A DNA stretch of 64,000 nt from Agarophyton chilense. Lineage: Eukaryota; Rhodophyta; Florideophyceae; Gracilariales; Gracilariaceae. Both the position numbers and the translations under genes were made by a program. Below, piece after piece: positions 350 through 61,991 of this stretch. Where the stretch lies: contig JARGXX010000105.1 in NCBI GenBank assembly GCA_030374765.1, positions 1,054,001-1,118,000 on the forward strand, written 5' to 3'. The notes under the pieces are model-generated. The model made no database searches, had not been told where the DNA came from, and saw only the letters and a program-made list of their open reading frames with translations. Positions within the stretch are counted from its first letter, which is position 1, and each line of letters opens with the position of its first letter.

Positions 350-422
350 TGGATCTGCCGGGCTTCGATCCCGGTACCTCTCCCATGCTAAGGGAGCACT
401 CTACCAATTGAGCTACAGACCC
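350..422 (-). tRNA. tRNA-Ala (anticodon AGC)
   Basis: Read on the minus strand, 73 nt fold as a complete cloverleaf. The acceptor stem GGGTCTG pairs with CAGATCC and includes the G3:U70 wobble pair, the main identity element for alanyl-tRNA synthetase. The anticodon AGC is at 389-387 in a 7-nt loop closed by CTCCC/GGGAG. The D-arm (TAGCTCAATTGG) and T-arm (GGATCGAAGCC) give the internal A and B boxes for Pol III. No intron is present and CCA is not encoded, as expected for a eukaryotic nuclear gene. It is the only host gene in the window I can name with confidence. Confidence 0.96.
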
Positions 423-14555: not shown

Positions 14556-16483
14556 ATGGTTAAGGTGCAATCAGAGAACCTTGAGGTAAAGGAGAACGAA
14601 GTATACCTATTGGACTGGGAAACAGTACCGCCCCATTCGGCACCACCTCGGGTTAACGCGGTAGCCCCGGAGGAAAAAGAACTCCTCCCTATAACTATTG
14701 AGGAACTCCTACAGGCGCAGGTCCAAGACGAGTACTGCAATGAAACAGCCCAATCGGTAGGATTCCCAGGATTCCTATTCGACTTTGACCGATTTGGACT
14801 ACTATGTCGCCAATCACCGGTGGATGGCGCACTCCAACGGGTAATACCAACTTCGCTAAGGGCGCGATTCCTATACTTCGCCCATTTCCCTCGCTTGCCT
14901 GGTCATCCTGGAGGCAGATGAATGTACCAGACCCTAAGGAAGTTCTTCTACTGGCCACTAATGGCGCAGGGCCTATGGCAAACCGCACGGAACTGTGCAT
15001 CGTGCGCACAGATCCGAGGGTCTCGCGCCTACCATAAGGCCAAACTGAAGCTCTTCCCCGCCGCAGGTCCAATCGAATTTGTCGCAATGGATATACTTGG
15101 GCCTTTGCCTAAGTCGTCCCATGAAAGACGGTTTGTTTTGGTTATAACCGATAGGTTTACCAAACTTACCCGAGCCCTACCCTTAGGAAAGACAACGGCC
15201 ACGGATGTCGTCACGGCCTTCTTGTCCCACTGGGTATATCCATATGGCATTCCACTATACCTTCTTATGGATAACGGGAGCCAGTTGGTATCCAAATTCT
15301 TCTCGCACGTCTGTGCTACCTTAGGTCTCAGACAAGTGACCACCACGGCGTACCACCCGCAAACCAATGGCCAAGCCAAACGCTTCAACCGCACCCTTCC
15401 GGGCCGATTGGCGCACTACGTTTCGGAGCACCAATTGGACTGGGAAGAATACGTTGAGCCACTGGTTTATGCCTACAACACGCAGTTGCACGCTTCCACA
15501 GGGACAACCCCTTTCGAATTAACACTAACAAGAGGGCCACCGCCAATAGCTGTTGACGTTCTGGAATCGATCATATCCCAGGACAAAGGCGAAGGAATGT
15601 CTCCGACCCAGGCGAAGCGCTACTCGCGCCAACGCATTGACCGCATTCTCCAATCGGCCAGAACTGTACTAACCAAAGCCCAACGGAGCTACCAGTGCAA
15701 TTTCGACAAAGCCGTTTCGAACACACCTACCTTTGGGAAAGGTGATCTGGTTTACCTGGACCGGCCACCGAATGACAGTGAGAAACTAGAGGACACTACG
15801 CGGAAGCTCTTACCCCGCTCTACGGGACCATACAAATCCTTAAGGCCAATGAACACACCAACACTTTACTCATTGACGGCCTACAGGACACTGTGTCTAT
15901 TGACCGCGTGACACGAGCTCCCAGTTCCTCCGGACTACGAACGTCCGAGCCCCCTGGCCCAACGGAAGCACCACGACCTCAGGCCGTCAATCAAGTCTCC
16001 AAACCCCCTAAGGCAGTTCCTTAGGACTCAAATAGCCCCACGGACACGATGGTCAAGGCCAACTACTATGACCCACCGCTCCCAACAGACTCCGATGGAT
16101 TCACCCCTCCGGGCCACACTCTCCTTCCGGAGGATGAACAACAACCGGAATATTGGATAGAGCGCATCATCTCCGCCGATATGGGAGAAGATGGAACTAT
16201 GCGCTATCGCGTCCGTTGATTCGGCTACACACCTGAGGAAGATACTGGGCAAGAGCCTCAAACCATTCCTTCTAATTTTATCACCCGCTATTGGCGCAGA
16301 ATCAGCCACTCGGAGCGCGGCCTTCAGGAGGGGGCAACCATTGGTCCGAATAATCCAACCATTGGCCCGAATAATACCGAAACGTCTCCTAAACCGCCTC
16401 CCGACACGACGGTTCGTCGGAGCACGACGGTTCGTCGTAGCTCCCGCATCAGGGAAGAAATTCAGTCCTTCGGAGACATCTGA
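14556..16483 (+). pseudogene. Gypsy-1 integrase with C-terminal chromodomain
   Basis: The block opens with a zinc-binding region (FAHFPRLPGHPGG ... CASCAQ), broken by a TGA at 14919-14921. The DDE core has Asp at 15090-15092 (VAMDILGPL) and 15270-15272 (LLMDNGSQL). Exactly 35 residues later the catalytic Glu is replaced by Lys (NGQAKRFNRTL, AAA at 15378-15380). A frameshift near 15835 moves reading to another frame, with a Pro-rich linker, short internal duplications (16336-16440) and a chromodomain (EYWIERIISADM...MRYRVR) whose key Trp codon is TGA at 16217-16219. Chromodomains of this clade direct integration to marked chromatin. The last stop is at 16481-16483. Confidence 0.88.
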
Positions 16484-16665: not shown

Positions 16666-17502
16666 TCACTGGGGCGGCGCAGAAGTAGCTCCGTCGTCCT
16701 CATTGGCATCTGCAGGAGCGAAACCGGGATCAGGGTCACCCGAGGAGCCAACTAGACCACCCGAACCGGCCCCAGCGAGCCGAGCACAATTCTTCGGCGG
16801 GGACTCTCCGGAAGAACTATTTTCAACATCAGAAACCCCCCGGTCACTAGAATTGAGACTATACCGTGCATCCCGGTCGGCAGTAGCCCTCTGCGACATC
16901 GCCTGAGCATTCTGGTGCAGAAGATTGATCATGGCTGTCTTTAGGTCCTGACCCAGTTGCGCTACGAGCGACGCGCCCAGGAGTAAGCTTTCTTTAGGAC
17001 TGTCGCAATGTCCATCGAGGCATTAATTCCAACGGGACGGCAGAAGGGCATGACGCACTGCCCGCGGATTTCGTCCGATGGTTTGTTCATATCGGCCCCT
17101 GGGGCGCTCATAAGCCACTTGGTATCCCGAGGAGCTCCCTGCTTGGTTGTTAGAAGCCATGGTGCCGCCGCCCACAGGTTGGTCCGCCGAGAAATGGATG
17201 GGGACACCGACGGAAGCGACATGGTCCGGAGGGAGAATGGCATATCCGACGGGCTTATAAGGCGATCGCGGCATCGCGCGCGACGAATTGAGGAATACCG
17301 CGAAGGGAAGAAGGAAAGATGAAACCGAATCGGGCAGGGTGGCTGACGTGACTTCGAATGTACGAAGCGCACACCGTGGTTCACGGCGGACAATGCGCGT
17401 AGGATCGCCCAAGGAATACCGAAAAATAGGAAAAGCGGCAAGGAACCTCCCCCCGGTGCGCGTACAGTACCTTAGGTGAACTAATTGCCAACCTGGCGCC
17501 AA
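16666..17502 (-). pseudogene. Gypsy-1 antisense ORF remnant, downstream of pol
   Basis: Between the pol stop and the 3' LTR the minus strand holds overlapping open frames: 17502-17023, 17441-16962 and 16932-16666 (88 codons, ATG start, acidic Ser/Gly-rich, ending SAPPQ). They seem to be pieces of one frameshifted ORF running toward pol. A segment with PRGRYEQTIGRNP resembles PRGWPPYEMLVGRHP of the long antisense ORF in Gypsy-3 (30867-32804). The gap from its stop to the pol stop is 182 bp here and 179 bp in Gypsy-3. Function unknown; the homology is suggestive, not proven. Confidence 0.45.
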
Positions 17503-29909: not shown

Positions 29910-30831
29910 TGTAGTGCAACGCCAAGGGCGGCGGAAACACACGAAGATGTCCGAGTCTTCCTCCAAGAAGGGTAGCACGGCGATGGAGCCTCTCCGGAGT
30001 GAACACAACTAAGTCGGGGTGTAAGGCCGAGGTTCACCGGCACGCCAAGCGGGGAGAGTGCGGGATGCTAGAAGGGAGCAGACCAGGTATGAGCTGTATT
30101 CCACGGGAGTGGGCAAGTCTCGAGATCGAGTAATGCACCAACAGGAGTGGCGGTAAACCCGGTAAGCCGGCGCGCGGCACACGCGCGAGCGGCACGAATA
30201 ACCAACCACAAAGCAAAAGAGGGAGCTACCACGAGAGTGGATAAGCGATAAAGGGGGGACCACCCAGTGGGGGCGATCGGGGGCATGGGCCACGAGAGCC
30301 AAAAGAAATATGTAGCAAACCCAATACTGGGGCGGGAACACGGCAGTGGTATGAAAGATATACACGCTAACAGCGGTGAGTCTCCTGTTGACGCAGGGTG
30401 GATAAGTCTACCGTTAGTAACGCGGCTTCACCTCCGTAGAGTGTGGAAGACTCGCGAAAGCGGAAAAAGACTTAGAGCCAAGAACCCTGGTTGGGGAGGT
30501 TTACTGAGTGTCAGGGCGAGATCGCCCTGGCACTATATAGTGTAGAATACTGTAAAGAGCTCCCTAACCTAGTGCAATAAAGCTAAATAAATAGAGAAAT
30601 ATCCAGCTATGCTGTGCCAACCTGTCCTGGGCCACCCGTGGTACACGTGGGTAAGTCACACCCGAATCGGGGCCACGGCGCACGGCCGCCGGTGCACTTC
30701 GCGTACAACGCGTATACACCTGGCTACGCCAGCCCGCTAGTAGCGGTATTACTCATAGATCTCACAAGTATCGCCCGAGGCGGAAAAACAACCAAGTCCT
30801 GGAAAACGGCCCTCACGAGGGTTGCAATTCA
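29910..30831 (-). repeat. Gypsy-3 LTR (inferred)
   Basis: In element orientation it starts TGAATTGCAACC after the tract AGGAGGGGGATA and ends GTTGCACTACA, about 922 bp. It contains an AT-rich TATA-like region (30528-30600). Orientation is inferred from the polypurine tract and from the adjoining pol; the left edge could be 29908. Confidence 0.5.
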
Positions 30832-30866
30832 TATCCCCCTCCTGAGGCGCGAGTACGACATCCGCG

Positions 30867-32804
30867 ATGGTGGGCGAAGCGCCGAGACGAATGCATAAGA
30901 GTGCAACCAGCTCGCTGGGATCCACTTCATCCGATGCCAACAAACGCAGTGCGGCAAAACTCCAGTCTCCTGGCAACAACCGTTCTCAACGTTCCATCTC
31001 AACCGAATCCGCATCCTTGCTTGCCAGTCCTCCGATTCCTCGGCATCGTCTTTCGCTTCGCCGGTCTCCTCTTCCGGTCATCCGGCCTCTTCGCTCACCG
31101 ATGAGCAACCAAAACAATCAACCCAACCGTCTCCCTGCGGGGTACTTCTCCGGCTTGTGGTCCGCTCCGCTTCCGCAAAGCGCGTCATCGGCTGCGCCGC
31201 AGACTCCTATTGCGAACGCGGCTGCTGCTCCGTACGGAATGTTCCCCCCGAGAGGGTGGCCGCCATACGAAATGCTTGTCGGGCGCCATCCTGGGCATCA
31301 TGCGTCCGTTCCCCGGCTTGCGCCGTGGTTCCATCCGATTGCGGTGTTAAACGAAGCGCTCATAGCGATGTACACCGATGGAAACGGGATGCTTCCGGGC
31401 GATATTCCGGCCGTGGAGACAACTTCGTTGGATTGGCGACGCCGCGTAGCGGTTCCGGTCCACGCTGTGGCACGCCGGGGTAGTGAAACCTCGGCTTCCG
31501 CTCATGCTGCCTTCGTCCTTCTTGGCCATCAACGGCTTCGCCGAGCTCCTTTCGAATATCCCTTCCCCGAGGGTCTCGGCACCAACATTCGGCTTTACCG
31601 CACTCAAGGTGAGATTGGTTACGTCGACCGCCTGGCGGGTTTGGAAACACTCTCGTGGAAGGGCATCCCGATAGCACGGCAAGAGGCCATGTGCTGGAAG
31701 CGACCGATTATCCGGGCAGAATTCCGCTACATGCTTCGACTTGCGCGGGCAAACTTCCTTGCCCTGATCCACTTCGAGCGTCGAGCACGATCCCGATTCG
31801 GGTATTTGGTCCCGTATCAGAACATGGAGATCGAACGCCTTCGCGTGGCCGACCGACGTGGTCGCTATGTCCTCATTCCACCGTGGTGGTCGAACCTCGA
31901 GGCCTGCCGGGGCTGGCACATCGAGCTGCCGCCAGTCATCACGTATTACGCTTCGTCCCTCATCGAGGATCCCGAGTCCGGACTGTGGTCCGTGGTGATT
32001 ACCGAATGGGCAGTCCGCGCGGCGGTGTTCATCCTCTGGGGGGTGTATGACCAGTGCAGACTGTGGTTCCTCCCGTTCCGGTTGAGGTCCGCGATTCGCA
32101 GCCTGGACCTGAGCATTCCACTTGGTGGAGTAACCCACGCCGAAGAAGTGGCGGGTCTTCTCGATTACATCGACCAGTTGGACTGGACCACCGTTCCGAA
32201 TGAACAAAGCAGGCGCACCGTGGGTAGCCGGGGTCAGGACCTGTCACCAGGAAGTCGTACTCCCTTGGGAGGTGATTTCGTATACTTTGACCCTTGGGAA
32301 GGGCACGAAATCTCCGCGGAGGAAGCGAACGAACTCCGGTTTGCACCACGCCATATCCCTGAGGGGCATCCGATCGGTTTCGTGGATGCGGATGAATATT
32401 ACCACGTCTACGACGGCGACGATCCAATGGTGGACAACGAACCCGACGACGGGGAAGCGTACGCGGAGGCAGAGGTCGAGGGATCCGAAGCGGAACGTCC
32501 CTATAACGAGGGGACGCCAGCCACGCCTTACGTGTATTTGGATGACCCCGCGGGGGCTGGGTCGGAGTACGCGGTAGCTGGACCAACTCCGGTTCCACCG
32601 GTGAATCTCCCAAGTGGTGCGGCGTCCGCCCCAGGCGATGCGAGCTCCGCTCCGGCGGGTCAAGCGGCCGTGATCTCCCAGTTCCTGCGACAGGTGGGGC
32701 TGGGGACCAACGCAGCGAGTGGCGATGTTGCCACGATGCGCGAGGCCTTGATCACCCGCCTCCAGGGAGGTAACCAACCCGGGGGCCATGAGCCGAACCC
32801 GTGA
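30867..32804 (+). CDS. Unknown 645-residue protein, antisense to Gypsy-3
   Basis: An uninterrupted ORF from ATG at 30867 (alternative ATG 30891) to TGA at 32802-32804. The first 90 residues are Ser/Arg/Pro-rich and disordered. Residues about 90-460 look globular, with many Trp, Tyr and Arg (PPRGWPPYEMLVGRHPGHH, GYVDRLAGLETLSWKGIPIA, RAEFRYMLRLARANFLALIH, WRRRVAVPVHAVARRG). From about 480 it turns strongly acidic (DADEYYHVYDGDDPMVDNEP), then Pro/Ala/Gly-rich, with a short helical end (MREALITRLQGG). I see no zinc knuckle, protease, RT or signal peptide, and I do not recognise the family. It converges on Gypsy-3 pol with 179 bp between the stops. It could be an accessory retroelement protein, a captured host gene, or gag of an unrelated plus-strand element. 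Confidence 0.6.
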   Translation: MVGEAPRRMHKSATSSLGSTSSDANKRSAAKLQSPGNNRSQRSISTESASLLASPPIPRHRLSLRRSPLPVIRPLRSPMSNQNNQPNRLPAGYFSGLWSAPLPQSASSAAPQTPIANAAAAPYGMFPPRGWPPYEMLVGRHPGHHASVPRLAPWFHPIAVLNEALIAMYTDGNGMLPGDIPAVETTSLDWRRRVAVPVHAVARRGSETSASAHAAFVLLGHQRLRRAPFEYPFPEGLGTNIRLYRTQGEIGYVDRLAGLETLSWKGIPIARQEAMCWKRPIIRAEFRYMLRLARANFLALIHFERRARSRFGYLVPYQNMEIERLRVADRRGRYVLIPPWWSNLEACRGWHIELPPVITYYASSLIEDPESGLWSVVITEWAVRAAVFILWGVYDQCRLWFLPFRLRSAIRSLDLSIPLGGVTHAEEVAGLLDYIDQLDWTTVPNEQSRRTVGSRGQDLSPGSRTPLGGDFVYFDPWEGHEISAEEANELRFAPRHIPEGHPIGFVDADEYYHVYDGDDPMVDNEPDDGEAYAEAEVEGSEAERPYNEGTPATPYVYLDDPAGAGSEYAVAGPTPVPPVNLPSGAASAPGDASSAPAGQAAVISQFLRQVGLGTNAASGDVATMREALITRLQGGNQPGGHEPNP

Positions 32805-32887
32805 CGGGGCACGCGATCCCGATGGGGATTTTTCCCTTGTGACTTAGAGTAGTATCCCGAGTGCTCGGTATTCCATCGATAGCTTCG

Positions 32888-32893
32888 AATAAA
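32888..32893 (+). terminator. Candidate poly(A) signal of the 645-residue ORF
   Basis: AATAAA on the plus strand, 83 nt after the stop codon and before the convergent pol stop at 32984. It would let the antisense transcript end without running into pol. Confidence 0.5.
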
Positions 32894-32983
32894 AACCAAG
32901 TGACTTGTGTAACCCAAAACCTTCCTTCACCAGCCTGTTCTCAAGCAAACCTACTTCTCTTTTCTCTTCCACCAAGGTGGGTG

Positions 32984-34600
32984 TTATCCCACCTGGGCTT
33001 TAACAACCGATGCCGGGATTCCCGTCCGCGTTCTGCGGTGATATGACACCACCTTCGAACGTGGGAGATGTTCCATCGGCTCATCCAAATCCCATTCGGG
33101 CCCTAAACCGTACCAACGGACGAGGTATTGAATATGACCATCCGGATGGTATGGGTGCTCCACTATGTGGTCGACCACGAACTTCTTCTCGTAGACTTCC
33201 CGCCCTTGCGGTGTACGCGTTACCGGACCAAACCAGTGTACGTCCGCAGGTGCGTGTGGGCTACTGTGCCCTTCCCCCGAGGGGTCCATGGGTTGGCGTT
33301 GCCTTTCCATCTCCTGGGTAGGGGAACGAACCGGGTTCCGGGTTGCCTTGGCCACTTGGCGGGTTGCCTCCGCCAAGGCGTCATGACGAAGAGCGTCAGT
33401 TCGACGGCTTCGGCCGGAGGCCTTCCCGTGGGGCAATTCTCCCAGTTTTTGGGTCGGAATGCTTTCCGAGAGTTCTCGTGCAGAGGCCACCCTTCGGAGG
33501 AACGCGGACTCATCCCAAGGCTGGGTTTCGTGGTCGCGTTCCGCGAGTCTTCGGGGTGAAATCCGTCGCGACGGTGCTGGACTTGACGCGGGAGGCGGTT
33601 TCATCGCGGGGCGTCGTGCCTTGCCGGGTGAGCCGCCTTGGGCGTTGATTGGCGTTTCTCCCGATCGGGGTGTCGTCTGGTCACGTGACACGTCCGGCTG
33701 ATGGCTGGGAGTACTCCGCGCCGTGCTGCGTTCCGCCTCCTCACGTGAGGGCGTATGAAACGGCGCTGCCGGTATGTCTGCTCGCTTGGGCGACAAAGTA
33801 CCGCGACGGGCGTGCAACTCCGGGTCAACCGTGCCTTCCTCACCAACGGGCGGCGAAGTGCGCGGCGAGGAACCCCTGCGGGGAGCGAGTTCGTCCTCAA
33901 ATATCCCTTTCGAGGGTTCAACTTCACTCGGCGACGAGGTGTTCATTCGGCGACGAGGTGCTTCCGTCCTTGACGGGCACATTCTCCGGGGTGACCGGTG
34001 CGCCTTCGACAACGCTGTCGGGGTCAACCGAGACACTCGGAGTGCGTCCGCCACTGCGCGCGGGTTCTGAACCAGCATCAAGCGTGCTGGGTGTGAATCT
34101 CCCGTCTGCTACGGTGTGCTTGCCCGGCTTAGCCGGTGTGTCCTGCCGTACAGTACGAGGGACCACTTCCGATCGATTCAGCCTAGAGGGGCCTGCGAGG
34201 GCGAACAGCATCCTGCGACAATTTCGGTTTCGCTTCGGTGAGAGGGTTTCCACTAGGTGGTGCATCCTGTCGAGTAGAGTCTCTGTGGGGAGTGCGATCA
34301 GACGCAGATGCGGTGGCACTTCCCATAAGGGATTCAGCAACGGCTTTAGCGCGCAAATGCGGAGATGGCACGTCGGTAGACGGGACGTCCGGATCACCGT
34401 TGTTCTTGCTGGTGTGTCCAGGAGTCCGTGCACCATGGTTGTCATGACATGACGAAGCGGTTTCCGTCTCTCGACGAGAGTTATGAGCCTCCTCCCCCTC
34501 CTGAGACGGAGCGGCATGGGGAGTCGTTGAAACGCCCAACGGGCGGGGGTAGACACCGCGCCGTGGCGTGGGAGAAGAGAGGCCATTCTGGCCTTGGTCC
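32984..34600 (-). pseudogene. Gypsy-3 pol C-terminus with chromodomain
   Basis: From 34081 to 32984 one frame encodes a long Pro/Ser/Arg-rich disordered linker, then a chromodomain: EKKFVVDHIVEHPYHPDGH, YLVRWYGLGPEWDLDEPMEH, SKVVSYHRR. The aromatic cage-type residues (Phe/Val start, Trp-Tyr, Trp) are in place. Upstream, 34539-34183 is open in a different frame with similar low-complexity content, so at least one frameshift or stop (near 34183) lies between. The integrase core itself is not included; the element is cut at 34600. Such chromodomains bind methylated histone tails and steer integration into heterochromatin. Gypsy-2 has a similarly long linker before its chromodomain. Confidence 0.8.
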
Positions 34601-41156: not shown

Positions 41157-42699
41157 GGTACACCCCAGGGTCTCACGGATACAAGTTGTGGGACTCTGAA
41201 AAGAAAAAGGTGATTGTGTCAAGAGATGTACGGTTTGATGAGTTTTTGGGCTCAGACAACCTGTTTAGCTATGAGGAAGAGGACTACGCAGACATTGACT
41301 TTAGTAATATGTCTAGTCCACATGATACCTCTACATCTGACACATCTAGTGGACCCAATGATGATGACCCTTCTGTGCCTTTGCCTGACTCTGATGATGC
41401 TTCTGACAGCTCTGTTGATGATTCCGCAGCTGATACACTAGTTGAGCCTGTAGTGCATGAGACACAACCTGTTCGTAGGTCCACGCGTGAACGTAGGAAG
41501 CCGAGCTCATGGTGGCGTGCAACTGCTCTACTCACTGCCAGTGATGACACCCCATCGTCATATGATGATGCTGTGTCACGTCCTGATTCCGAAGCATGGA
41601 AAAAGGCAATGAAGAGTGAGTACCAGTCACTAATTGAGCATGACACATGGGACTTAGTGCCAAGGCCAGCAGACAGCAACGTGATTTCGTCCAAGTGGGT
41701 GTATGTGCAGAAGTATGAAGCAGCACCATCTGGTGAACCAACTATCAGGTACAAGGCTCGTATGGTTGCTAGAGGATTCCTGCAGATCGAGGGTGTTGAC
41801 TTTTCTGAAACATATGCACCTGTTGTTAAGTTTACCTCGATCAGGATGATTCTGTCAGTGACTGCTGTACGAGACTTTCAATTGCATCAGAGGATGTGAA
41901 AACAGCTTTTCTGAACGGTGACCTTGAGGAGACAGTGTACATGGAGCAGCCAACAGGTTTTGTGCAGCAAGGTAACGAGGATCTGGTGTGTCGTTTGAAG
42001 AAAGCCATCTATGGGCTACGACAGGCACCCAGACAGTGGCATGCAAAGATATACTCGTTCCTTGTTGAGGAGATGCAGTTGACGCCAAATGACGCAGATG
42101 AGTGTGTGTACAGCGGAAAGATACTGGGATTTGTTGTTCAAATTGCTCTATACGTTGATGACTTGCTTATTGCAAGTCCGAGCATGAAGACAATGGATCG
42201 TGTAAAGGCAGAGCTGTCGTCTCGGTTCCACATGAAAGACCTCCATCAAGCTCGCATGGTACTCGGATTCGAGATCCACCGTGACAGAGTTAAGCGAGAG
42301 TTGTATCTGACTCAGTCTGCGTACACACAAAAGGTCTTGGAACGTTTTGGCATGCACCAGTCCAAACCAGTTGACACTCCAATGGAAGTTGGCATGGACC
42401 TGTCTGCTATTCAGGATGTACTCAGGGAGGTGCCGTACCGTCAGGCAATTGGCTGTCTCATGTACTTGTCTGTAGGAACTCGTCCAGATATCTCATACGC
42501 GGTGTCCAAACTTGCCAAGTATGTTGAGAAGCCTGGAGAGATTCACTGGAAGGCAGTCAAACGTGTGCTTCGCTATCTCAACGGTACTTGTACATTTGGT
42601 CTCACCTACGGCTTAAACACCGATTTGGCACTTCAAGGCTACGTGGACTCTGACTGGGCAGGCGATGTTGCAAACAGCAAGTCTACCAGTGGATACTTG
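41157..42699 (+). pseudogene. Copia-Bx 5' part: integrase tail, RT and RNase H start
   Basis: It opens in the integrase tail (GYTPGSHGYKLWDSEKKK) and runs through the acidic linker, RT (LVARGFLQIEGVD-type motif, KTAFLNGDLEETVYMEQPTG, ALYVDDLLIASPS) to the RNase H start (GYVDSDWAGDVANSKSTSGYL). A 1-bp deletion near 41890 (CAGAGGATG for CAGATGGATG in B2) splits it into two frames. Its left part is removed by Copia-A2. It ends exactly at GGATACTTG, where the Copia-B2 LTR begins. The missing remainder is the inverted fragment at 49325-49787. Confidence 0.92.
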
Positions 42700-43387
42700 T
42701 GTTGGATAGGAAAATCCTGAAGGAAAGGTTGAGGGATGAAAGGAAAGTTCGCCAGCTCTGGCTTGGATTTACTTGGAGGCGCTCAAACTTTCACTTATAT
42801 ACTACTTCAAAACGTCAGCTGTCTAGACTCCAACACAAAGTAAACCCTAGACTACAAAGCAGGGACACTCAATACTACCAATCATATTCAAGCATGACAT
42901 TAACCCTAGTCAATGTTCATTGCAACGCACAACAAGGCAATACAACAGTGCACAGCCCATCATTACACTGACGTGTGCACAAATTCAATATGCCAGCACA
43001 CACTACTTGCAATCCGCCTCCATACACATTCACGTTCCAGCACAGTACACCAAGTCTCCTGTAATACACATGTCACGTCTCTTCTCCAAGTACATTCGTT
43101 ACACCTTGTGAGATGTGTTCATAGTACACCAGCTGGACATATTGAACAGCGTGCACAGTAGTACAAGTAGACCACGTACACACGTGTACCACAGACAAAC
43201 CCAATAGTGCCATACCACTTGTACACACCACATTGCATGTGCACATTTGCAGTAGCCAATCACAGCCCGAGTTCACGTTGAGATCCGACTGACACGCATA
43301 TGCGCTTTTCCAGAGGCACCCTCCAAAACAGCCCATGCTCCCCTGCACTTTTGGTTTTCAGTGACAGCACAGGGTCAACAGCCAACA
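42700..43387 (-). repeat. Copia-B2 3' LTR
   Basis: 688 bp; in sense TGTTGGCTG...CTATCCAACA. The sense polypurine tract GACAGAGGGGGAG lies at 43400-43388. Confidence 0.95.
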
Positions 43388-43407
43388 CTCCCCCTCTGTC
43401 ACTGACT

Positions 43408-46400
43408 TCAATGGTCTAGGTGTCGGACGCCACTGTCTTCACGGAACCTCTCGTGCTTCACACGGCAAAGTGGTCTGTTGAGCATATCGGCAGTCATGCA
43501 ATCGGTAGGGCAGTAGAACAACACAATCGACTTGTCACGTAGAGCTTCTCGAGTAAAGTGAAAACGAATGTCGATATGCTTGGTACGCTTGTTGACAACG
43601 CCATTTCGGGCAAGGTCAATGCACCCTTGGTTGTCAAGATATACAGGCGTTGGTTCAACAAGCAACTTTACCTAATCGTCCACTTCTACTCCAATGACTA
43701 TGCCGATGCCATTCCACAAACGCCTAAGCCAGATGGCCTCTTTGGAACCACTGCACAGACTCACATACTCAACTTCAGCACTAGACAGTGCAACCACTTC
43801 TTGCTGACGTGAACACCATGACACAGAACCTCCAGCTATCATGAACAAGTATCCACTGGTAGACTTGCGGTTTGCAACATCGCCTGCCCAGTCAGAGTCC
43901 ACGTAGCCTTGAAGTGCCAAATCGGTGTTTAAGCCGTAGGTGAGACCAAATGTACAAGTACCGTTGAGATAGCGAAGCACACGTTTGACTGCCTTCCAGT
44001 GAATCTCTCCAGGCTTCTCAACATACTTGGCAAGTTTGGACACCGCGTATGAGATATCTGGACGAGTTCCTACAGACAAGTACATGAGACAGCCAATTGC
44101 CTGACGGTACGGCACCTCCCTGAGTACATCCTGAATAGCAGACAGGTCCATGCCAACTTCCATTGGAGTGTCAACTGGTTTGGACTGGTGCATGCCAAAA
44201 CGTTCCAAGACCTTTTGTGTGTACGCAGACTGAGTCAGATACAACTCTCGCTTAACTCTGTCACGGTGGATCTCGAATCCGAGTACCATGCGAGCTTGAT
44301 AGAGGTCTTTCATGTGGAACCGAGACGACAGCTCTGCCTTTACAAGATCCATTGTCTTCATGCTCGGACTTGCAATAAGCAAGTCATCAACGTATAGAGC
44401 AATTTGAACAACAAATCCCAGTATCTTTCCGCTGTACACACACTCATCTGCGTCATTTGGCGTCAACTGCATCTCCTCAACAAGGAACGAGTATATCTTT
44501 GCATGCCACTGTCTGGGTGCCTGTCGTAGCCCATAGATGGCTTTCTTCAAACGACACACCAGATCCTCGTTACCTTGCTGCACAAAACCTGTTGGCTGCT
44601 CCATGTACACTGTCTCCTCAAGGTCACCGTTCAGAAAAGCTGTTTTCACATCCATCTGGTTCAAATGAAAGTCTCGTACAGCAGTCACTGACAGAATCAT
44701 CCTGATCGAGGTAAACTTAACAACAGGTGCATATGTTTCAGAAAAGTCACCACCCTCGATCTGCAGGAATCCTCTAGCAACCATACGAGCCTTGTACCTG
44801 ATAGTTGGTTCACCAGATGGTGCTGCTTCATACTTCTGCACATACACCCACTTGGACGAAATCACGTTGCTGTCTGCTGGCCTTGGCACTAAGTCCCATG
44901 TGTCATGCTCAATTAGTGACTGGTACTCACTCTTCATTGCCTTCTTCCATGCTTCGGAATCAGGACGTGACACAGCATCATCATATGACGACGGGGTGTC
45001 ATCACTGGCAGTGAGTAGAGCAGTTGCACGCCACCATGAGCTCGGCTTCCTACGTTCACGCGTGGACCTACGAACAGGTTGTGTCTCATGCCCTACAGGC
45101 TCAACTGATGTATCAGCTGCGGAATCATCAACAGAGCTGTCAGAAGCATCATCAGAGTCAGGCAAAGGCGCAGAAGGGTCATCATCGCTGGGTCCACCAG
45201 ATGTGTCAGATGTAGAGGTATCATGTGAACTAGACATATTACTAAAGTCAATGTCTGCGTAGTCCTCTTCCTCATAGCTAAACTGGTTGTCTGAGCCCGA
45301 AAACTCATCAAACCGTACATCTCTTGACACAATCACCTTTTTCTTTTCAGAGTCCCACAACTTGTATCCGTGAGACCCTGGGGTGTACCCAATAAAGATA
45401 GCTTCCACACCACGCTCCTCTAGCTTCTTCAGCTTATGATTCACAACCTTGTACCAGCATCGGCTCCCAAACACACGCAGGTTGCTCACATCAGGCTTCT
45501 GACCATGCCACAGTTCATATGGTGTCAAACTACTTGGAAGAGCTTTGCAAGTCACACGGTTGCGCACATACACTGCAACATTCAGTGCCTCAGCCCAAAA
45601 GTGCTTTGGCAATTTCTTGTGACATAACATCGATCTGACCAAGTCCATGAGTGTGCGGTTGAACCGTTCGGCAAGTCCATTCTGCTGAGGATTGTAAAGC
45701 ACAGTTCGCTGATGCTCAATACCGTGACGTTCAAGTTCTTTGGTAAAACGATGTGACAGATATTCACCACCGTTGTCAGTGCGCAATGCTTTGAGCACAC
45801 TGTCACGTGCCGTGATGGTTTTCACTTGTCTGCCAGTTTGGTTTTGAACAAACTTGAGCCACCTTAGGAACATCTGGAACACCTCATCCTTAGTTTTGAG
45901 CATGTTAAAGAAGCAGAAACGACTGTGATCATCGATGAATGTGACGAAGTAGTGCGAGCCTCCCAAGGATTTCACACTTACTGGACCTGACACATCGGAG
46001 TGAACAAGTTCCAGTACGTGTTTTGCTCGTTCCCCCCCTTGCTTGGGAGTCGGAGCACTGGTTGCTTTTCCTACTACACATGAGCCACACACATCTGAAT
46101 CCTGCGCAACGTCTACATTGAGCCCTGACACAACCTTGTTTCGAGCCATATGCTTGATACCATCCACATTCACATGAGCCATTCGAGCATGCCATAGTGA
46201 CAAGTCCGACACAAGTGCGCTGTTTACATCTGTACACTGGTGTGCAGCAGTGCAAAGGCAGTATAGGCCTTTGACGCGGCGCCCCAAGGCAACCACTTTT
46301 GACCCCTTGTAAACACATACCTTCTCTTTTTCAAACACTACTTTGCACCCCAGATCACAAATCGCCGATACAGAAAGCAAATGGTACCTTAAATTCGGTA

Positions 46401-47433
46401 CATGAACAACTTGCTTCAGCTGGCACTTTCGTTTGGACCCTTCCACAATCAGATCAAGCTCCACACTACCGTGACCAACAGACTCTAGTTTGGAATCATT
46501 ACCGATGCTAACGCCAGAAGACACCTTACTATCATATGTTTGGAACATGGATTCGTCAAAAGTCATGTGCGCAGTAGCACCAGAGTCAACAATCCAGTCA
46601 CTGTTCGTGGCTTTATCAGAGCCAGTAGCAATGAGACATACAAAGTCAGAGTCGTTGCCACCCGTACCTCGCTCATCGCTGAGCTCAGTATTGACAGTTG
46701 GGTGAGCAGCACCGACCTGATTCCTGTTAGCCCCATCACGTTGCTTCTTGAAACAGTTCCTCTGGATATGACCCTTCTTATGACAATAATGACACTCGAT
46801 GTTCTTCCATCGCGACTGCCTGCCAACCAAAGCTGCCTCACTTCCACCAGGCTCCTCCTTGGCACGATCGTTCATTCGCTGCTCTTCTTGCAGCAGACGA
46901 CTCTTCACAAACTCTAGAGTGAGTTGACGATCGCCAATCGTGGTATCAATTGCGACGATGAGGTGCTCGAATCTTTCCGGAAGTCCGCATAGGATGGCCA
47001 TAGCGATGTCCTCCTCCTCAACAACAACGTCCATACACTTCAGGTCCGATGCCAGATGACGTACACGGTTGATGAACTGTAGCATTTTCTCATCATCACG
47101 CATCTTGGCAGAGTAGAAGGACCGTCGGGCGTTGATTTTGTTGAGCAGAGTCTTGCGTTGGAACACATCGCAAATGGCTTTCCACATATCGGCAGCGTTG
47201 TCGGCGTCCCGCACATGATCTAAATGCTCATCACTGAGTGTGAGACCAATAATAGCTCTGGCCTTGGCATCTTTCTTTTTCCAAGTCGACAGCTCATCTT
47301 CGTCAGTGGGTCTAACAGAGTCGAGGTGGCCGTCGAGGTCCTTGAGTGCAAGCAGCAGCTCAATCTTCTGCTTCCATACGTGGAAGTTATCCTCAACCAG
47401 CTTTTCGATTTTCACCCCACTGAACGAATCCAT
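43408..47433 (-). pseudogene. Copia-B2 gag-pol, one nonsense codon
   Basis: From ATG at 47433 (MDSFSGVKIEKLVEDNF), 1253 codons are open and 88 more follow a TAG at 43674-43672; the Bx copy has TCG (Ser) there. In order: gag core, zinc knuckle CHYCHKKGHIQRNC, protease DWIVDSGATAHMT, pre-integrase LWHARMAHVN, integrase (LELVHSDVSGPV, LRTDNGGEYLSHRF, NGLAERFNRT with 35 residues between Asp and Glu), RT (MDVKTAFLNGDLEETVYM, ALYVDDLLIASPS), RNase H (YVDSDWAGDVANRKSTSGYL, VALSSAEVEYVSL). The stop removes the last RNase H Asp (LDNQGCIDLA). The frame upstream of 47433 starts at GTG and is leader. Confidence 0.93.
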
Positions 47434-48622
47434 GTTGTGCAAAGTGTCACAAGAGGCCGAGAGAGATGACTTGACAGCAACAGACGAGTGAACAACAACA
47501 ACAGACAACAACAACAAAGTAAAAACAACAAACAACAAATAATTCTTCAAGATTGAACAGACAATAATCTGCGGGCGCACTGGCAGGGCTTCCTATACCC
47601 GCGTCCCTAAAGGTCGGACCCCTGGCCCCCAGAGCTCTTCTGGGTAGATAACGGTTTTCTGCAGTCTACCTCCGCCCACGTCAAAAGCAGAAGGCGCGTT
47701 GCTCCTTACGAGGCTTCCAGAGGATGGTTAATGACCGAAGATATGCCTTCACCAAGTTGACCCTCTCTGGCCTCTTTCAAGAACTAGCGCGACCTCGAAA
47801 CCGAAGCTACTTCAACACTAAGATACGCTTCTAACAAGCAATCAATGAAGATCGCACGCGGCCTGATCCTGGAAAGGAGGTCAGCCTTCGAAACGTCGCC
47901 TCCCCGCGTACTGCGGATCAAAAGCTCCTTATGGATGCTGTTCACAACAGTCCAAGTGCCCAACCACAAAGGTCGGGCTCACACACAAAGTCAAACAACC
48001 AGCCAAATGCAGTGCGCCACGGCACCCCGTCCACAAATGCACCCGCAAAGTTCAACCAGATCTTTCGACCGTCACTGTTATCCGCCCTAAAAGGACCAGT
48101 GGGGAACCCGCTTGACAGTACACCTGCTTTGGTTCAAGCCGCCAGGCTAACGTCCCCGAGTACAAGGAATCACCCAAAGTACCTCGGATCAACCGCTCGT
48201 CGCACAGGCAATGATGCAGACCAAACACACAAACACACACGAACGCTGAGCCAAGAACTCCAGGCCCAGACTTCAACAAACACGGTCCTCAACCTCTCAG
48301 ATCAGAACCCGCAAACACGACGCAGGGATCCACAAAACAACGAAAGAGAGGGAGACCAAACGAAACGGATAGCGATCGACAAACACGGGCAACAACGAGC
48401 ACCCAAACACAATCACGATAAAAACGTCCAACCACTACCACCACAACGCCCTCAGGGAGGAACGCAAGACCGAAAGAAAAAACCAACACCAACCCACGAT
48501 ACGGTCACACACCCGACAAAACGGCTACTACGGCGGAAACGAAGAGAATTGAACAGCGAAACGGGTGAACGGCGGTGCGGGAGAGCGGCGAGGGCCGAAC
48601 TAGACGGCAGAGGTCAGCGGGG
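47434..48622 (-). other. Copia-B2 5' leader
   Basis: 1189 nt between primer site and gag ATG. Next to gag is a (TTG)n-rich stretch (about 47490-47545). It carries the blocks shared with Copia-A: sense GCCAGTGCGCCCGC (47584-47571), a CCTTTAGGG block (47625-47605) and GTTCAATC (47558-47551). The opposite strand is open from ATG 47931 to 48908 (325 codons, Gln/Thr/Arg/Pro-rich); matching ATG-started frames occur in B1 (29042-28422) and B3 (51180-50014). Confidence 0.7.
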
Positions 48623-48636
48623 CTGGGCCCATAACC
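48623..48636 (-). other. Copia-B2 primer binding site (half-tRNA type)
   Basis: Sense GGTTATGGGCCCAG abutting the 5' LTR; same interpretation as the other Copia sites. Confidence 0.88.
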
Positions 48637-49324
48637 TGTTGGATAGGGAAATGCTGAAGGAAAGGTTGAGGGATGAAAGGAAAGTTCGCCAGCTCTGGCT
48701 TGGATTTACTTGGAGGCGCTCAAACTTTCACTTATATACTACTTCAAAACGTCAGCTGTCTAGACTCCAACACAAAGTAAACCCTAGACTACAAAGCAGG
48801 GACACTCAATACTACCAATCATATTCAAGCATGACATTAACCCTAGTCAATGTTCATTGCAACGCACAACAAGGCAATACAACAGTGCACAGCCCATCAT
48901 TACACTGACGTGTGCACAAATTCAATATGCCAGCACACACTACTTGCAATCCGCCTCCATACACATTCACGTTCCAGCACAGTACACCAAGTCTCCTGTA
49001 ATACACATGTCACGTCTCTTCTCCAAGTACATTCGTTACACCTTGTGAGATGTGTTCATAGTACACCAGCTGGACATATTGAACAGCGTGCACAGTAGTA
49101 CAAGTAGACCACGTACACACGTGTACCACAGACAAACCCAATAGTGCCATACCACTTGTACACACCACATTGCATGTGCACATTTGCAGTAGCCAATCAC
49201 AGCCCGAGTTCACGTTGAGATCCGACTGACACGCATATGCGCTTTTCCAGAGGCACCCTCCAAAACAGCCCATGCTCCCCTGCACTTTTGGTTTTCAGTG
49301 ACAGCACAGGGTCAACAGCCAACA
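48637..49324 (-). repeat. Copia-B2 5' LTR, shared with the flipped Bx fragment
   Basis: 688 bp. To its left is the B2 leader; to its right, in the same orientation, is the polypurine tract and 3' coding end of Bx, so this LTR serves as 5' LTR of one unit and 3' LTR of another. Confidence 0.94.
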
Positions 49325-49787
49325 CTCCCCCTCTGTCACTGACTTCAATGGTCTAGGTGTCGGACGCCACTGTCTTCACGGAACCTCTCGTGCTTCACAC
49401 GGCAAAGTGGTCTGTTGAGCATATCGGCAGTCATGCAATCGGTAGGGCAGTAGAACAACACAATCGACTTGTCACGTAGAGCTTCTCGAGTAAAGTGAAA
49501 TCGAATGTCGATATGCTTGGTACGCTTGTTGACGACGCCATTTCGGGCAAGGTCAATGCACCCTTGGTTGTCAACATATACAGGCGTTGGTTCAACAAGC
49601 AACTTTACCGAATCGTCCACTTCTACTCCAATGACTATGCCGATGCCATTCCACAAACGCCTAAGCCAGATGGCCTCTTTGGAACCACTGCACAGACTCA
49701 CATACTCAGCTTCAGCACTAGACAGTACAACCACTTCTTGCTGACGTGAACACCATGACACAGAACCTCCAGCTATCATGAACAAGT
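49325..49787 (-). pseudogene. Copia-Bx 3' part, inverted: end of RNase H
   Basis: On the minus strand the fragment starts at the codons for LFMIAGGSVSWCSRQQ and runs through VVLSSAEAEYVSLCSG, VEPTPVYVDNQGCIDLA and KHIDIRFHFTREAL to the natural stop at 49345 (VRHLDH) and the polypurine tract. It begins precisely where the plus-strand Bx piece ends at 42699 (GATACTTG then TTCATG). Together they cover RNase H without gap, so they are two halves of one element, the second flipped. Its Ser codon TCG at the B2 nonsense site is intact. Confidence 0.92.
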
Positions 49788-50474
49788 TGTTGGCTGTTGA
49801 CCCTGTGCTGTCACTGAAAAACAAAAGTGCAGGGGAGCATGGGCTGTTTTGGAGGGTGCCCCTGGAAAAGCGCATATGCGTGTCAGTCGGATCTCAACGT
49901 GAACTCGGGCTGTGATTGGCTACTGCAAATGTGCACATGCAATGTGGTGTGTACAAGTGGTATGGCACTATTGGGTTTGTCTGTGGTACACGTGTGTACG
50001 TGGTCTACTTGTACTACTGTGCACGCTGTTCAATATGTCCAGCTGGTGTACTATGAACACATCTCACAAGGTGTAACGAATGTACTTGGAGAAGAGACGT
50101 GACATGTGTATTACAGGAGACTTGGTGTACTGTGCTGGAACGTGAATGTGTATGGAGGCGGATTGCAAGTAGTGTGTGCTGGCATATTGAATTTGTGCAC
50201 ACGTCAGTGTAATTATGGGCTGTGCACTGTATATTGCCTTGTTGTGCGCTGCAATGAACATTGACTAGGGTTAATGTCATGCTTGAATATGATTGGTAGT
50301 ATTGAGTGTCCCTGCTTTGTAGTCTAGGGTTTACTTTGTGTTGGAGTCTAGACAGCTGACGTTTTGAAGTAGTATATAAGTGAAAGTTTGAGCGCCTCCA
50401 AGTAAATCCAAGCCAGAGCTGGCGTACTTTCCTTTCATCCCTCAACCTTTCCTTCAGGATTTTCCTATCCAACA
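49788..50474 (+). repeat. Copia-B3 5' LTR
   Basis: 687 bp, TGTTGGCTG...CTATCCAACA, in the opposite orientation to the LTR at 48637-49324. Preceded by CAAGT. Confidence 0.94.
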
Positions 50475-50488
50475 GGTTATGGGCCCAG
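50475..50488 (+). other. Copia-B3 primer binding site (half-tRNA type)
   Basis: GGTTATGGGCCCAG immediately after the LTR. Confidence 0.88.
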
Positions 50489-51677
50489 ACCCGCTGACCT
50501 CTGCCATCTAGTTCGTCTCTCGCCGCTCTCCCGCACCGCCGTTCACCCGTTTCGCTGTTCAATTCTCTTCGTTTCCGCCGTAGTAGCCGTTTCGTCGGGT
50601 GTGTGACCGTATCGTGGGTTGGTGTTGGTTTTTTCTTTCGGTCTTGTGTTCCTCCCTGAGGGCGTTGTGGTGGTAGTGGTTGGACGTTTTTATCGTGATT
50701 GTGGTTGGGTGCTCGTTGTTGCCCGTGTTTGTCGATCGCTATCCGTTTCGTTTGGTCTCCCTCTCTTTCGTTGTTTTGTGGATCCCTGCGTCGTGTTTGC
50801 GGGTTCTGATCTGAGAGGTTGAGGACCGTGTTTGTTGAAGTCTGGGCCTGGAGTTCTTGGCTCAGCATTCGTGTGTGTTTGTGTGTTTGGTCTGCATCAT
50901 TGCCTGTGCGACGAGCGGTTGATCCGAGGTACTTTGGGTGATTCCTTGTACTCGGGGACGTTAGCCTGGCGGCTTGAACCAAAGCAGGTGTACTGTCAAG
51001 CGGGTTCCCCACTGGTCCTTTTAGGGCGGATAACAGTGACGGTCGAAAGATCTGGTTGAACTTTGCGGGTGCATTTGTGGACGGGGTGCCGTGGCGCACT
51101 GCATTTGGCTGGTTGTTTGACTTTGTGTGTGAGCCCGACCTTTGTGGTTGGGCACTTGGACTGTTGTGAACAGCATCCATAAGGAGCTTTTGATCCGCAG
51201 TACGCGGGAAGGCGACGTTTCGAAGGCTGACCTCCTTTCCAGGATCAGGCCGCGTGCGATCTTCATTGATTGCTCGTTAGAAGCGTATCTTGGTGTTGAA
51301 GTAGCTTCGGTTTCGAGGTCGCGCTAGTTCTTGAAAGAGGCCAGAGAGGGTCAACTTGGTGAAGGCATATCTTCGGTCGTTAACCATCCTCTGGAAGCCT
51401 CGTAAGGAGCAACGCGCCTTCTGCTTTTGACGTGGGCGGAGGTAGACTGCAGAAAACCGTTATCTACCCAGAAGAGCTCTGGGGGCCAGGGGTCCGACCT
51501 TTAGGGACGCGGGTATAGGAAGCCCTGCCAGTGCGCCCGCAGACTATTGTCTGTTCAATCTTGAAGAATTATTTGTTGTTTGTTGTTTTTACTTTGTTGT
51601 TGTTGTCTGTTGTTGTTGTTCACTTGTCTGTTGCTGTCAAGCCATCTCTTTCGGCCTCTTGTGACACTTTGCACAAC

Positions 51678-53561
51678 ATGGATTCGTTCAGTAGGGTGAA
51701 AATCGAAAAGCTGGTTGAGGATAACTTCCACGTATGGAAGCAGAAGATTGAGCTGCTGCTTGCACTCAAGGACCTCGACGGCCACCTCGACTCTGTTAGA
51801 CCCACTGACGAAGATGAGCTGTCGACTTGGAAAAAGAAAGATGCCAAGGCCAGAGCTATTATTGGTCTCACACTCAGTGATGAGCATTTGCATCATGTGC
51901 GGGACGCCGACAACGCTGCCGATATGTGGAAAGCCATTTGCGATGTGTTCCAACGCAAGACTCTGCTCAACAAAATCAACGCCCGACGGTCCTTCTACTC
52001 TGCCAAGATGCGTGATGATGAGAAAATGCTACAGTTCATCAACCGTGTACGTCATCTGGCATCGGACCTAAAGTGTATGGACGTCGTTGTTGAGGAGGAG
52101 GACATCGCTATGGCCATCCTATGCGGACTTCCGGAAAGATTCGAGCACCTCATCGTGGCAATTGACACCACGATTGGCGATCGTCACCTCACGCTAGAGT
52201 TTGGGAAGAGTCGTTTGCTGCAAGAAGAGCAGCGAATGAACGATCGTGCCAAAGAGGAGTCCGGAAGTGAGGCAGCTTTGGTTGGCAGGCAGTCGCGATG
52301 GAAGAACATCGAGTGTCATTATTGTCATAAGAAAGGTCATATCCAAAGGAACTGTTTCAAAAAGCAACGTGATGAGGCTAACAACGCTCAGGAAGCTGCC
52401 GCCCACCCAAGTGTACAACATGCTTACCGCGAAGAGCATGGTTTGGGTGACAGCGACTCTGAGTACGTTTGCGTCGTTGCCAGCGGTACCTCTAAGGCCA
52501 CCAACAGTGACTGGATTGTGGACTCTGGAGCTACCGCACACATGACTTATGACGACTCCATGTTCCAATCGTATGAGAGCAAGGTGTCCCCTGGTGTGAG
52601 TATCGGCAACGATTCCAAGTTAGAGTCTCATGGCCAAGGTTTTGTTGAACTGGATCTGACTGTTGAGGGGTTCACGCGCACGTGCAAGATGAGCAAGGCA
52701 GTGCACGTGCCAAATCTGCGATACCACCTGCTGTCGGTATCTGCAATTTGTGACTTGGATGCTACTGTTGTGTTCGACAAGCACAAGGTGTGCGTGTACA
52801 AGGGCTCTACTCTGATTGCCCAAGGACGCCGCGTCAAAGGCCTGTACTACCTCTGCACGGCAGTGTCACAACTTGGTGATGTGAACAGTGCACTTGTGTC
52901 GGACCTGTCGATATGGTATGCTCGCATGGCTCACGTGAATGTAGGTGGCATCAAGCAAATGGCTCGCAATGGCGTTGTGTCAGGGCTGAATGTGGGTGTT
53001 ACGCAGAAGCTGGACATTTGTGACTCATGTGTTGTAGGCAAGTCTACCAGCGCTGCTACTCCCAAGCAAGGGGGGGAGCGCGCAACCAAGCTGTTGGACC
53101 TCGTTCACTCGGACACATGTGGTCCAGTGGAGGTTGGTTCCTTGGGAGGCTTGCGCTACTTTGTCACATTCATCGACGATCACAGTCGGTACTGCTTCCT
53201 GTACATGCTCAAGACCAAGGATGAGGTGTTCCAGATGTTCGTGAAGTGGCTCAAGTTTGTTCAAAACCAAACTGGTACACAAGGCAAAACCATCGCTGCC
53301 CGTGAGTGCGTACTTCGTTCGCTACGATCGGGCAATGGTGGTGAGTACCTTTCCGAGAAGTTTGCAAAAGAACTTGAGTCACACGGTATTGAACATCAGC
53401 GAACTGTGCCTTACAATCCGCAGCAGAACGGACTGGCCGAAAGGTTAAACCGCACACTCATGGATCTGGTCAGGTCAATGCTTTGTCACAAGAAACTCCC
53501 TGAAAGCTTCTGGGCAGAAGCACTGAATGTCGCGCCGTATGTGCGCAACCGAGTTACATGC
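51678..53561 (+). pseudogene. Copia-B3/D gag, protease and integrase (5' part)
   Basis: Starts at ATG 51678 (MDSFSRVKIEKLVED). Gag and zinc knuckle (CHYCHKKGHIQRNC) match B2 closely up to about 52375; beyond that, protease (DWIVDSGATAHMTYDD), pre-integrase (IWYARMAHVNVGGI) and integrase match B2 only loosely. In the integrase core the second catalytic Asp is Gly (LRSGNGGEYLSEKF, GGC at 53331-53333), while the first (LDLVHSDTCGPV) and the Glu (NGLAERLNRT) remain. The frame is open up to the solo LTR inserted at 53562, after the codons for NRVTC. Confidence 0.92.
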
Positions 53562-59545: not shown

Positions 59546-60556
59546 AGACGTTATACTTGCCCGTCAATACGGGAAAGTTACCTCATGGTAGTTTCTAAAA
59601 GAAACTATAAGGTCTATGCCGACATCGGCCCTGACAGGAATCTGTTATCTCGTCGATTGACTATCCTGGACACAGGTGCTGGTCCGAACTTTATACGGGA
59701 ATCGGAGGTCGCTCCTGCTGACTTAGAACGTATTCGATACGGTCCTTTACCAGACATCCGGGATGCCAACAAAAATGCTGTGAAGACACTGCGAACAGTT
59801 CGACTCGTGGTGCGTTTAGGACGCTTTGTAGTCCTAGTCGACTTCATCGTCTGTAAGACGTTAGCTGCACCAGTGGTACTGGGATGTGATTATTGCGACA
59901 AGTTTGTCAAAGCCATTTGCCCGCGAAGAAAACTAGTGGAACTAGATGATGGATCAATGGTACCAATTGTTCGCAAGCCAATGCGTCGTTGCCCCGAAGC
60001 ACCTCCACTTCCACCATCTATGGAATACGGGAAATCCCGAGGACGTGTCTCGCCCAGGATTCGAGTAGCGAAGAGTGCCATGCTGAAGGCGCAAACCCAA
60101 ACTTGGGTTCAAGTAAGAACAGAACGACACGAACTCGTGGTAATTCAAACGAATACTCGGATGTACGAATCCCGTGGATTGCTAGTTGCTAATGGCATTG
60201 CTCAGGTTGATCCTGGTAGCCCCTTTTGGATACTAGTGACTAACTTCACCGATAAAGATTATCAGATACCGAAGAATCAGGTTGTTGCAGCAGCTATGAC
60301 TCATCCCATAGTGGTGGTCCCTACTCATAGTTCTACCTCAGAAGTATTGGGATTAACCCATGTCGGTGACACAGACAAAGAACTGCAAACTCCGTCTGGA
60401 CATCAATTGCAAACGGCAAAGGATCAGGAGAGCCTGGTCGATGAGCTAGACTTAGCATATGTGTCGGAACACTACAGAGCGAAGATCAGGTCTATGCTGA
60501 AGAAGTATACATCCATGTGGAGTGGAAAACTAGGAGAGATCTCCGCTACGGAATAA
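59546..60556 (+). pseudogene. Gypsy-2 protease and linker
   Basis: The frame opens after a stop at 59543; the first ATG is 59585. Active site RLTILDTGAGPNFIRESEV (D-T-G) and the later VVLGCDYCDKFVKAI give a retropepsin-type fold, which cleaves Gag-Pol. A linker to the RT follows (SKMVAAAMTHPIVVV-like, then LAYVSEHYRAKIRSMLKKY). A TAA at 60554-60556 replaces the residue before HIDLVPG, so the RT continues in the same frame after one nonsense codon. This region has no counterpart in Gypsy-1. Confidence 0.85.
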
Positions 60557-61921: not shown

Positions 61922-61991
61922 CCGTTCCTGGCATTAGCAGACACTGACCCTTCAGTTCAACTCGAGCGAATCTCGTGCACTGAGCTCCTCA

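What the first reader, a model, noticed from the sequence alone, without database searches (positions are those of the whole stretch)
29910..34600. Antisense ORF between pol and 3' LTR, seen in two chromodomain Gypsy families
In Gypsy-3 a 645-codon ORF lies opposite to pol between the chromodomain and the LTR. In Gypsy-1 the same interval holds broken minus-strand frames. The stop-to-stop gap is 179 and 182 bp, an AATAAA lies 83 and 86 nt after the antisense stop, and a PRG..YE..(I/V)GR.P pattern occurs in both. Shared layout in two diverged elements suggests a conserved accessory gene on the antisense strand. Plant Gypsy elements such as Grande carry antisense ORFs downstream of pol, so the architecture has precedent; this protein looks unfamiliar.
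Basis: partly seen in the sequence, partly recalled or inferred. Interest (0 to 1): 0.78.

Follow-up and report, generated by a model that had tools for sequence, protein, structure and literature searches.

The report
Antisense gene in chromodomain Gypsy retrotransposons
A family of mobile elements carries an extra gene written backwards behind its main genes; the protein appears to be kept by selection across several related families but resembles no known protein, so it looks like a real yet unexplained part of these elements.

Summary
A 645-codon ORF (30867-32804, +) fills the space between pol and the 3' LTR of a Gypsy element read on the minus strand (gap 179 bp; AATAAA 84 nt after the stop). 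0 of 1000 resamples reach that length. 67 of 68 scored genome copies face a pol tail. Two other families encode relatives at about 50% identity, with dN/dS 0.25-0.37. Gypsy-1's broken frames come from a shared 1.46-kb deletion that shifts the frame; a long relative (L058) keeps the antisense ORF open and is distantly related to the Gypsy-3 protein (BLASTP E 0.003; 0 of 500 shuffles reach its local score). Antisense genes in this place are known from plants and a fungus, but this protein has no convincing Pfam or PDB relative. Function is inferred: an LTR-driven, probably nuclear accessory protein. Against: no RNA data; within-family change is near neutral (also in pol); copies that lost the ORF multiplied; 4 of 5 family-B loci show none; structure prediction failed (pLDDT 30).

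The parts
29910..30831 (-). 3' LTR of the Gypsy-3 element (922 bp, TG...CA)
   Evidence: 5' LTRs in L039-L042 start at the same base and end within 3 bases; LTR pairs within four copies 95.9-98.2% identical, one pair aligned in two pieces
30832..30845 (-). probable polypurine tract, next to the LTR
   Evidence: pyrimidine-rich on +, directly at the LTR edge (sequence); assignment inferred
30867..32804 (+). antisense ORF, 645 codons
   Evidence: relatives in other families; dN/dS 0.25-0.37
32888..32893 (+). AATAAA, 84 nt after the antisense stop
   Evidence: at 83-85 nt in 26 of 30 copies read
32984..34081 (-). end of pol, with sub-threshold chromodomain match at about 33041-33181
34195..34203 (-). 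site of a deletion of about 98 bp in pol of this copy
   Evidence: other copies align in two pieces that overlap here by 9 bases and lie about 90 bp apart
15962..16483 (+). end of Gypsy-1 pol with chromodomain-like stretch; stop at 16481-16483
   Evidence: tblastn E 7.7e-6, 24% over 123 residues to the Gypsy-3 pol tail
16666..17121 (-). remains of the Gypsy-1 antisense ORF: L058 codons 1-29 at 17121-17035, 512-540 at 17045-16959, 544-642 at 16965-16669; codons 30-511 absent

Best explanation
The ORF is a real protein-coding accessory gene of a group of chromodomain Ty3/Gypsy elements, placed tail to tail with pol and filling the pol-3' LTR interval. Its ATG lies 36 bp from the LTR, so its mRNA very probably starts inside the 3' LTR, and it may end near the AATAAA in the short gap before the pol stop. 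The protein has a basic, low-complexity N-terminus, a Trp/Arg-rich core, an acidic stretch and a short conserved C-terminal motif. I infer a nuclear protein that regulates expression or integration of its own element and that can be supplied in trans, since derivatives that lost it multiplied. Shown by computation: coding, conserved between families, antisense, convergent. Inferred: LTR antisense promoter, nuclear site, regulatory role, trans action.
For: Length beyond chance. 68 scored copies (of 1982 candidates), 66 covering at least 639 of 645 residues, 25 without internal stop, the window's copy among them. 67 of 68 convergent with a pol tail, 0 on the same strand, 1 without a listed tail. 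Relatives: L050, 48% over 333-634 and 52% over 79-325 (E 1e-141); L045, 50% over 92-298 (E 3e-57). dN/dS 0.25-0.37 for Gypsy-3 against these, 0.31 between them (a second piece had saturated dS), and about twice as many changes at codon position 3 (90/88/173 in 291 codons of one piece). L058: 642 codons read, all open, of a 698-codon frame, opposite to pol, 189 bp between match ends. Distant homology Gypsy-3/L058: local score 94, 0 of 500 full and 0 of 500 block shuffles reach it. In the window no ATG stands in the 257 nt before the start codon; so in 22 of 30 copies. NLS-like PPKKRARL or PPKKRTRL in Gypsy-1-type C-termini, not in Gypsy-3. No transmembrane window.
Against: No transcript or protein data. 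Within Gypsy-3 the frame looks near neutral: w 0.82 for singletons, 0.77 for doubletons, 0.35 for variants in 3-5 copies (10 N, 12 S), 1.88 for 6 or more (9 N, 2 S); the other five frames give 0.88-1.30 for singletons. Family B: 4 of 5 loci (L046-L049) show no relative at E 1e-3. Gypsy-1 derivatives without the ORF fill all 40 scored places found with the window's DNA. Of 68 long L058-type rows only 2, L058 included, lack an internal stop. Gypsy-3/L058 similarity is weak by BLASTP (E 0.003) and hhalign (probability 6%, P 0.006; score 30.4 against at most 24.1 in 20 shuffles); in global alignment 9 of 500 block shuffles reach the full-length score and 124-129 of 500 that of the N-terminal core. 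19 of 86 Gypsy-3 pol tails have no scored ORF. 8 of 30 copies have an ATG nearer than 257 nt. L050 has no AATAAA in the 220 nt after its stop. dS between families is 1.2-1.8, against L058 2.3-2.9, so dN/dS is rough. Structure unusable (mean pLDDT 30).
Confidence: 0.6

Rival explanations
1. The protein is a structural or replication helper (second particle protein, chaperone or env-like factor) rather than a nuclear regulator.
For: Fold and function unknown; long conserved core.
Against: A gag-like region with a CCHC motif lies upstream of pol in one copy, read by eye in a frame fused to another element's pol, though no Pfam gag family matched it; no transmembrane window; antisense transcription would separate it from gag-pol supply.
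Confidence: 0.22
2. The antisense RNA is what matters (double-stranded RNA with the genomic transcript, silencing or interference), and the ORF is carried along.
For: Convergent transcription is implied by the layout; such roles are proposed for plant elements (PMC7264820, part 2 read).
Against: An RNA role does not predict dN/dS 0.25-0.37 or excess third-position change in the antisense frame.
Confidence: 0.1
3. A host gene captured recently and carried as a passenger.
For: No known domain.
Against: 67 of 68 scored copies lie beside pol; relatives sit in the same place in other families at about 50% identity. Searches were capped, so a single-copy host homologue is not excluded.
Confidence: 0.05
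4. A chance open frame in non-coding DNA.
For: Near-neutral pattern within the family.
Against: 0 of 1000 resamples; cross-family protein homology and selection.
Confidence: 0.03

Closest known systems
Antisense additional ORFs between pol and 3' LTR (aORF-3R) of plant elements: Grande gene23, RIRE2, Retand
   Same: Same place and strand, present in most copies, role unknown; Grande's protein is nuclear (PMC7264820, parts 1 and 2 of 3 read)
   Different: No TRP28/PF04195 match; pol ends in a chromodomain-like stretch; the interval is about 2.15 kb against 2.9-6.6 kb in Retand (PMC11963269, passages); the ATG is 36 bp from the LTR, which leaves little room for a separate promoter such as Grande's
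Boty / BcGypsy1 antisense gene brtn of Botrytis
   Same: Antisense extra gene in a fungal Gypsy-type element (PMC7264820 part 1; PMC8365987, passages and reference title)
   Different: Protein not compared; its sequence was not at hand
Chronos elements of oomycetes (PMC5348765: passages, section 5)
   Same: Gypsy element with a chromodomain at the end of pol
   Different: Chronos has two RNase H domains; only the Gypsy-type one was found here. 'Antisense' does not occur in that paper's main text
HTLV-1 HBZ
   Same: By analogy: HTLV has an antisense promoter in its 3' LTR (PMC7264820 part 2), and HBZ is a nuclear protein (PMC11963269, passages)
   Different: No Pfam domain at all at E 1 in the Gypsy-3 protein, so no bZIP (that HBZ is a bZIP protein is recalled)

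Membership tests
aORF-3R (antisense ORF between pol and 3' LTR) | lies between pol and 3' LTR | tested here: met
   pol tail ends at 32984, LTR 29910-30831
aORF-3R (antisense ORF between pol and 3' LTR) | opposite strand to pol | tested here: met
   67 of 68 Gypsy-3 copies; 27 of 27 L058-type copies with a listed tail, 41 of 68 having none listed
aORF-3R (antisense ORF between pol and 3' LTR) | present in most copies of the family | tested here: met
   32 of 32 scored DNA copies; 67 of 86 Gypsy-3 pol tails have a scored ORF, the rest unknown. Not so in family B (1 of 5 loci)
aORF-3R (antisense ORF between pol and 3' LTR) | own antisense transcription | not testable with these tools
   no RNA data
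Retand/Grande TRP28 proteins | Transposase_28 domain, PF04195 | tested here: not met
   no match in the Gypsy-3 ORF at E 1 or in L058 and pieces of L050 and L053 at E 10; HMMER filters apply
Chronos | second (archaeal-type) RNase H in pol | tested here: not met
   Pfam on 1480 aa of pol of one copy: only the Gypsy-type RNase H models
Chronos | chromodomain at the end of pol | tested here: inconclusive
   18.8 and 23.0 bits, E 0.0015 and 7.7e-5, in the right place and over most of the model, but under the 25.1 cut-off
env-like aORF | sense strand and transmembrane segment | tested here: not met
   antisense; highest 19-residue hydropathy 1.59
HBZ-like antisense gene | bZIP domain | tested here: not met
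   no Pfam family at E 1

The most novel reading that the evidence does not exclude
An old, previously undescribed protein superfamily encoded on the antisense strand of chromodomain Gypsy elements, older than the split of at least four families, transcribed from the 3' LTR and acting in trans, so that elements which delete it survive as parasites of those that keep it: an antisense regulatory gene arrangement reached independently of plants, Botrytis and HTLV.
Probability: 0.35. Interest if true: 0.72.

Novelty: new variant of a known kind. Interest (0 to 1): 0.52.

Why it matters
Antisense genes in LTR retrotransposons are described mainly from flowering plants, and their function is unknown (PMC7264820, PMC11963269 passages). 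Another protein without known relatives in the same place, under selection across families of a chromodomain lineage, would argue that an antisense accessory gene is a recurrent solution. Long and deleted forms in one genome offer a way to test whether the protein acts in trans.

Tried and rejected
Within-family dN/dS: copies form a near-star burst with mostly singleton changes; the pol tail of the same copies behaves alike (singleton w 1.29, then 0.80, 2.75, 0.63 in rising frequency classes), so this test cannot decide. Two copies (L023, L031, shifted ends) were dropped before that count (28 of 30 used; 30).

Fold: AlphaFold2 on 16 rows gave mean pLDDT 30, so no fold search was run. Pfam and PDB sequence searches found nothing convincing (one PDB hit at E 0.17). 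IMG/VR: two pattern matches, neither a relative. Gypsy-1 in the window was set aside as an independent witness of an intact gene: it is a deletion derivative. L051 was fetched but not tested for a relative. In one search I gave 86 of the 114 rows (the Gypsy-3-like ones, chosen by identity); its second half used a part chosen by eye and is replaced, which used 150 listed rows.

Papers: searches (0 papers; 310, 20 listed; 52, 20 listed; 7; 5; 45, 12 listed; 1) showed no title or abstract start about such a gene in an oomycete or relative; passages of PMC3522703 were seen too. Host: unnamed; oomycete-like is my recollection only.
Full report
What is there. The window is a stretch of nested LTR elements in an unnamed 80-Mb genome. 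The element called Gypsy-3 runs on the minus strand; its left end in the window is a 922-bp LTR at 29910-30831, whose borders are set by 5' LTRs in four other copies (same start, ends within 3 bases); the LTR pairs of these four copies are 95.9-98.2% identical, one pair in two pieces. From the coordinates three of the copies measure 11.9-12.0 kb and one 10.7 kb. One copy (L043/L004) encodes reverse transcriptase, one RNase H, integrase and a sub-threshold chromodomain match; a protease-like motif and, upstream, a gag-like region with a CCHC motif were read by eye, the latter in a frame fused to another element and without a Pfam gag match. In the window copy pol carries a deletion of about 98 bp near 34195-34203 and is cut near 34625 by the LTR of another element, Copia-like by eye.

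The antisense ORF. It runs from 30867 to 32804 on the plus strand, 645 codons, 36 bp from the LTR and 179 bp from the pol stop. No resample of the interval came near (longest 432 of 1000). A protein search of the genome scored 68 of 1982 candidates: 66 cover at least 639 residues and 25 have no internal stop. Set against 86 Gypsy-3-like pol tails (of 114 rows), 67 of 68 ORFs face a pol tail, none lies on the same strand, and one has no listed tail; 19 of 86 tails have no scored ORF, which the scoring cap may or may not explain. All 32 scored DNA copies, the window's included, span the interval.

Conservation. A pol-tail search revealed a related family at 61-67% identity and a remoter one at 43%. 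The interval of the remoter element (L050) encodes the same protein in pieces, 48% over residues 333-634 and 52% over 79-325; L045 of the closer family matches at 50% over 92-298; L046-L049 of that family do not match at E 1e-3. Pairwise dN/dS in open pieces is 0.25-0.37 (two Gypsy-3 copies against three pieces of L050 and one of L045); L045 against L050 gives 0.31 in one piece and saturated dS in the other; third positions change about twice as often as first or second. dS is 1.2-1.8, so these are rough. Within Gypsy-3 changes look near neutral, as in the pol tail, which fits decay after insertion.

Gypsy-1. The window copy has a pol end at 16483 and an antisense stop at 16666. A search with the C-terminal piece of a relative listed 150 scored places of 835 candidates; one, L058, has a 698-codon frame, of which 642 codons were read and are open. 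Its match ends 189 bp from a pol tail on the other strand; of 68 L058-type ORFs set against 150 listed tails, 27 have a tail nearby and all 27 are convergent. Only 2 of 68 long rows lack an internal stop. Window Gypsy-1 and L053, L055 and L057 keep codons 1-29 and 512-642 of L058 (L056: 512-642 by protein, both ends by DNA), with an 11-nt overlap at the junction that changes frame, a net loss of about 1.46 kb. The Gypsy-3 protein aligns to the missing part of L058, so the long form is the older. All 40 scored places found with the window's DNA span this junction, though the query favours such copies. So the ORF can be lost without stopping amplification.

Are the two proteins related? The local alignment (351-624 against 211-527) scores 94; 0 of 500 full and 0 of 500 block shuffles reach it. 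For the core alone (A 121-460, L058 1-350) 0 and 1 of 500 reach the local score. In global alignment 0 and 9 of 500 reach the full-length score, and 124 and 129 of 500 that of the core. BLASTP gives E 0.003, hhalign P 0.006 with probability 6%, score 30.4 against at most 24.1 in 20 shuffles. I judge them homologous but distant.

What it may do. No Pfam relative, one PDB hit at E 0.17, no transmembrane segment, basic N-terminus (+11 in 80 residues), acidic stretch (-21 in 481-560), and an NLS-like stretch in Gypsy-1-type C-termini. With the ATG 36 bp from the LTR, transcription very probably begins in the LTR; TATATA lies 333 bp upstream, and no ATG stands in the last 257 bp in the window (22 of 30 copies; 8 have a nearer one). 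An LTR-driven nuclear accessory protein is the best reading; only the coding and the layout are shown.

Known precedents. Plant elements and Boty carry antisense ORFs here (PMC7264820); Retand proteins share TRP28 (PMC11963269 passages). This protein shows no TRP28 match, and the element is not Chronos by RNase H content.

Noticed in passing
59585-63998 (+): A third Gypsy element with reverse transcriptase, integrase and a pol linker like that of Gypsy-3 (25%, E 1e-8) runs off the window; its pol-3' LTR interval lies outside and was not read.
   Followed up: no
41157-45389 and 46847-52264: Large near-perfect inverted repeats (arms 735, 818 and 2033 nt, 98-99%), probably like elements nested in opposite orientation.
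   Followed up: no
30534-30539, in the LTR: A palindromic TATATA stands for both strands, so one site could serve sense and antisense transcription.
   Followed up: partly
L045-L049: The pol-LTR interval of family-B copies shows short open frames in the pol sense (103-155 codons) where a full antisense ORF might be expected.
   Followed up: no
350-422 (-): A tRNA gene, the only Rfam match in the window at the gathering threshold.
   Followed up: no
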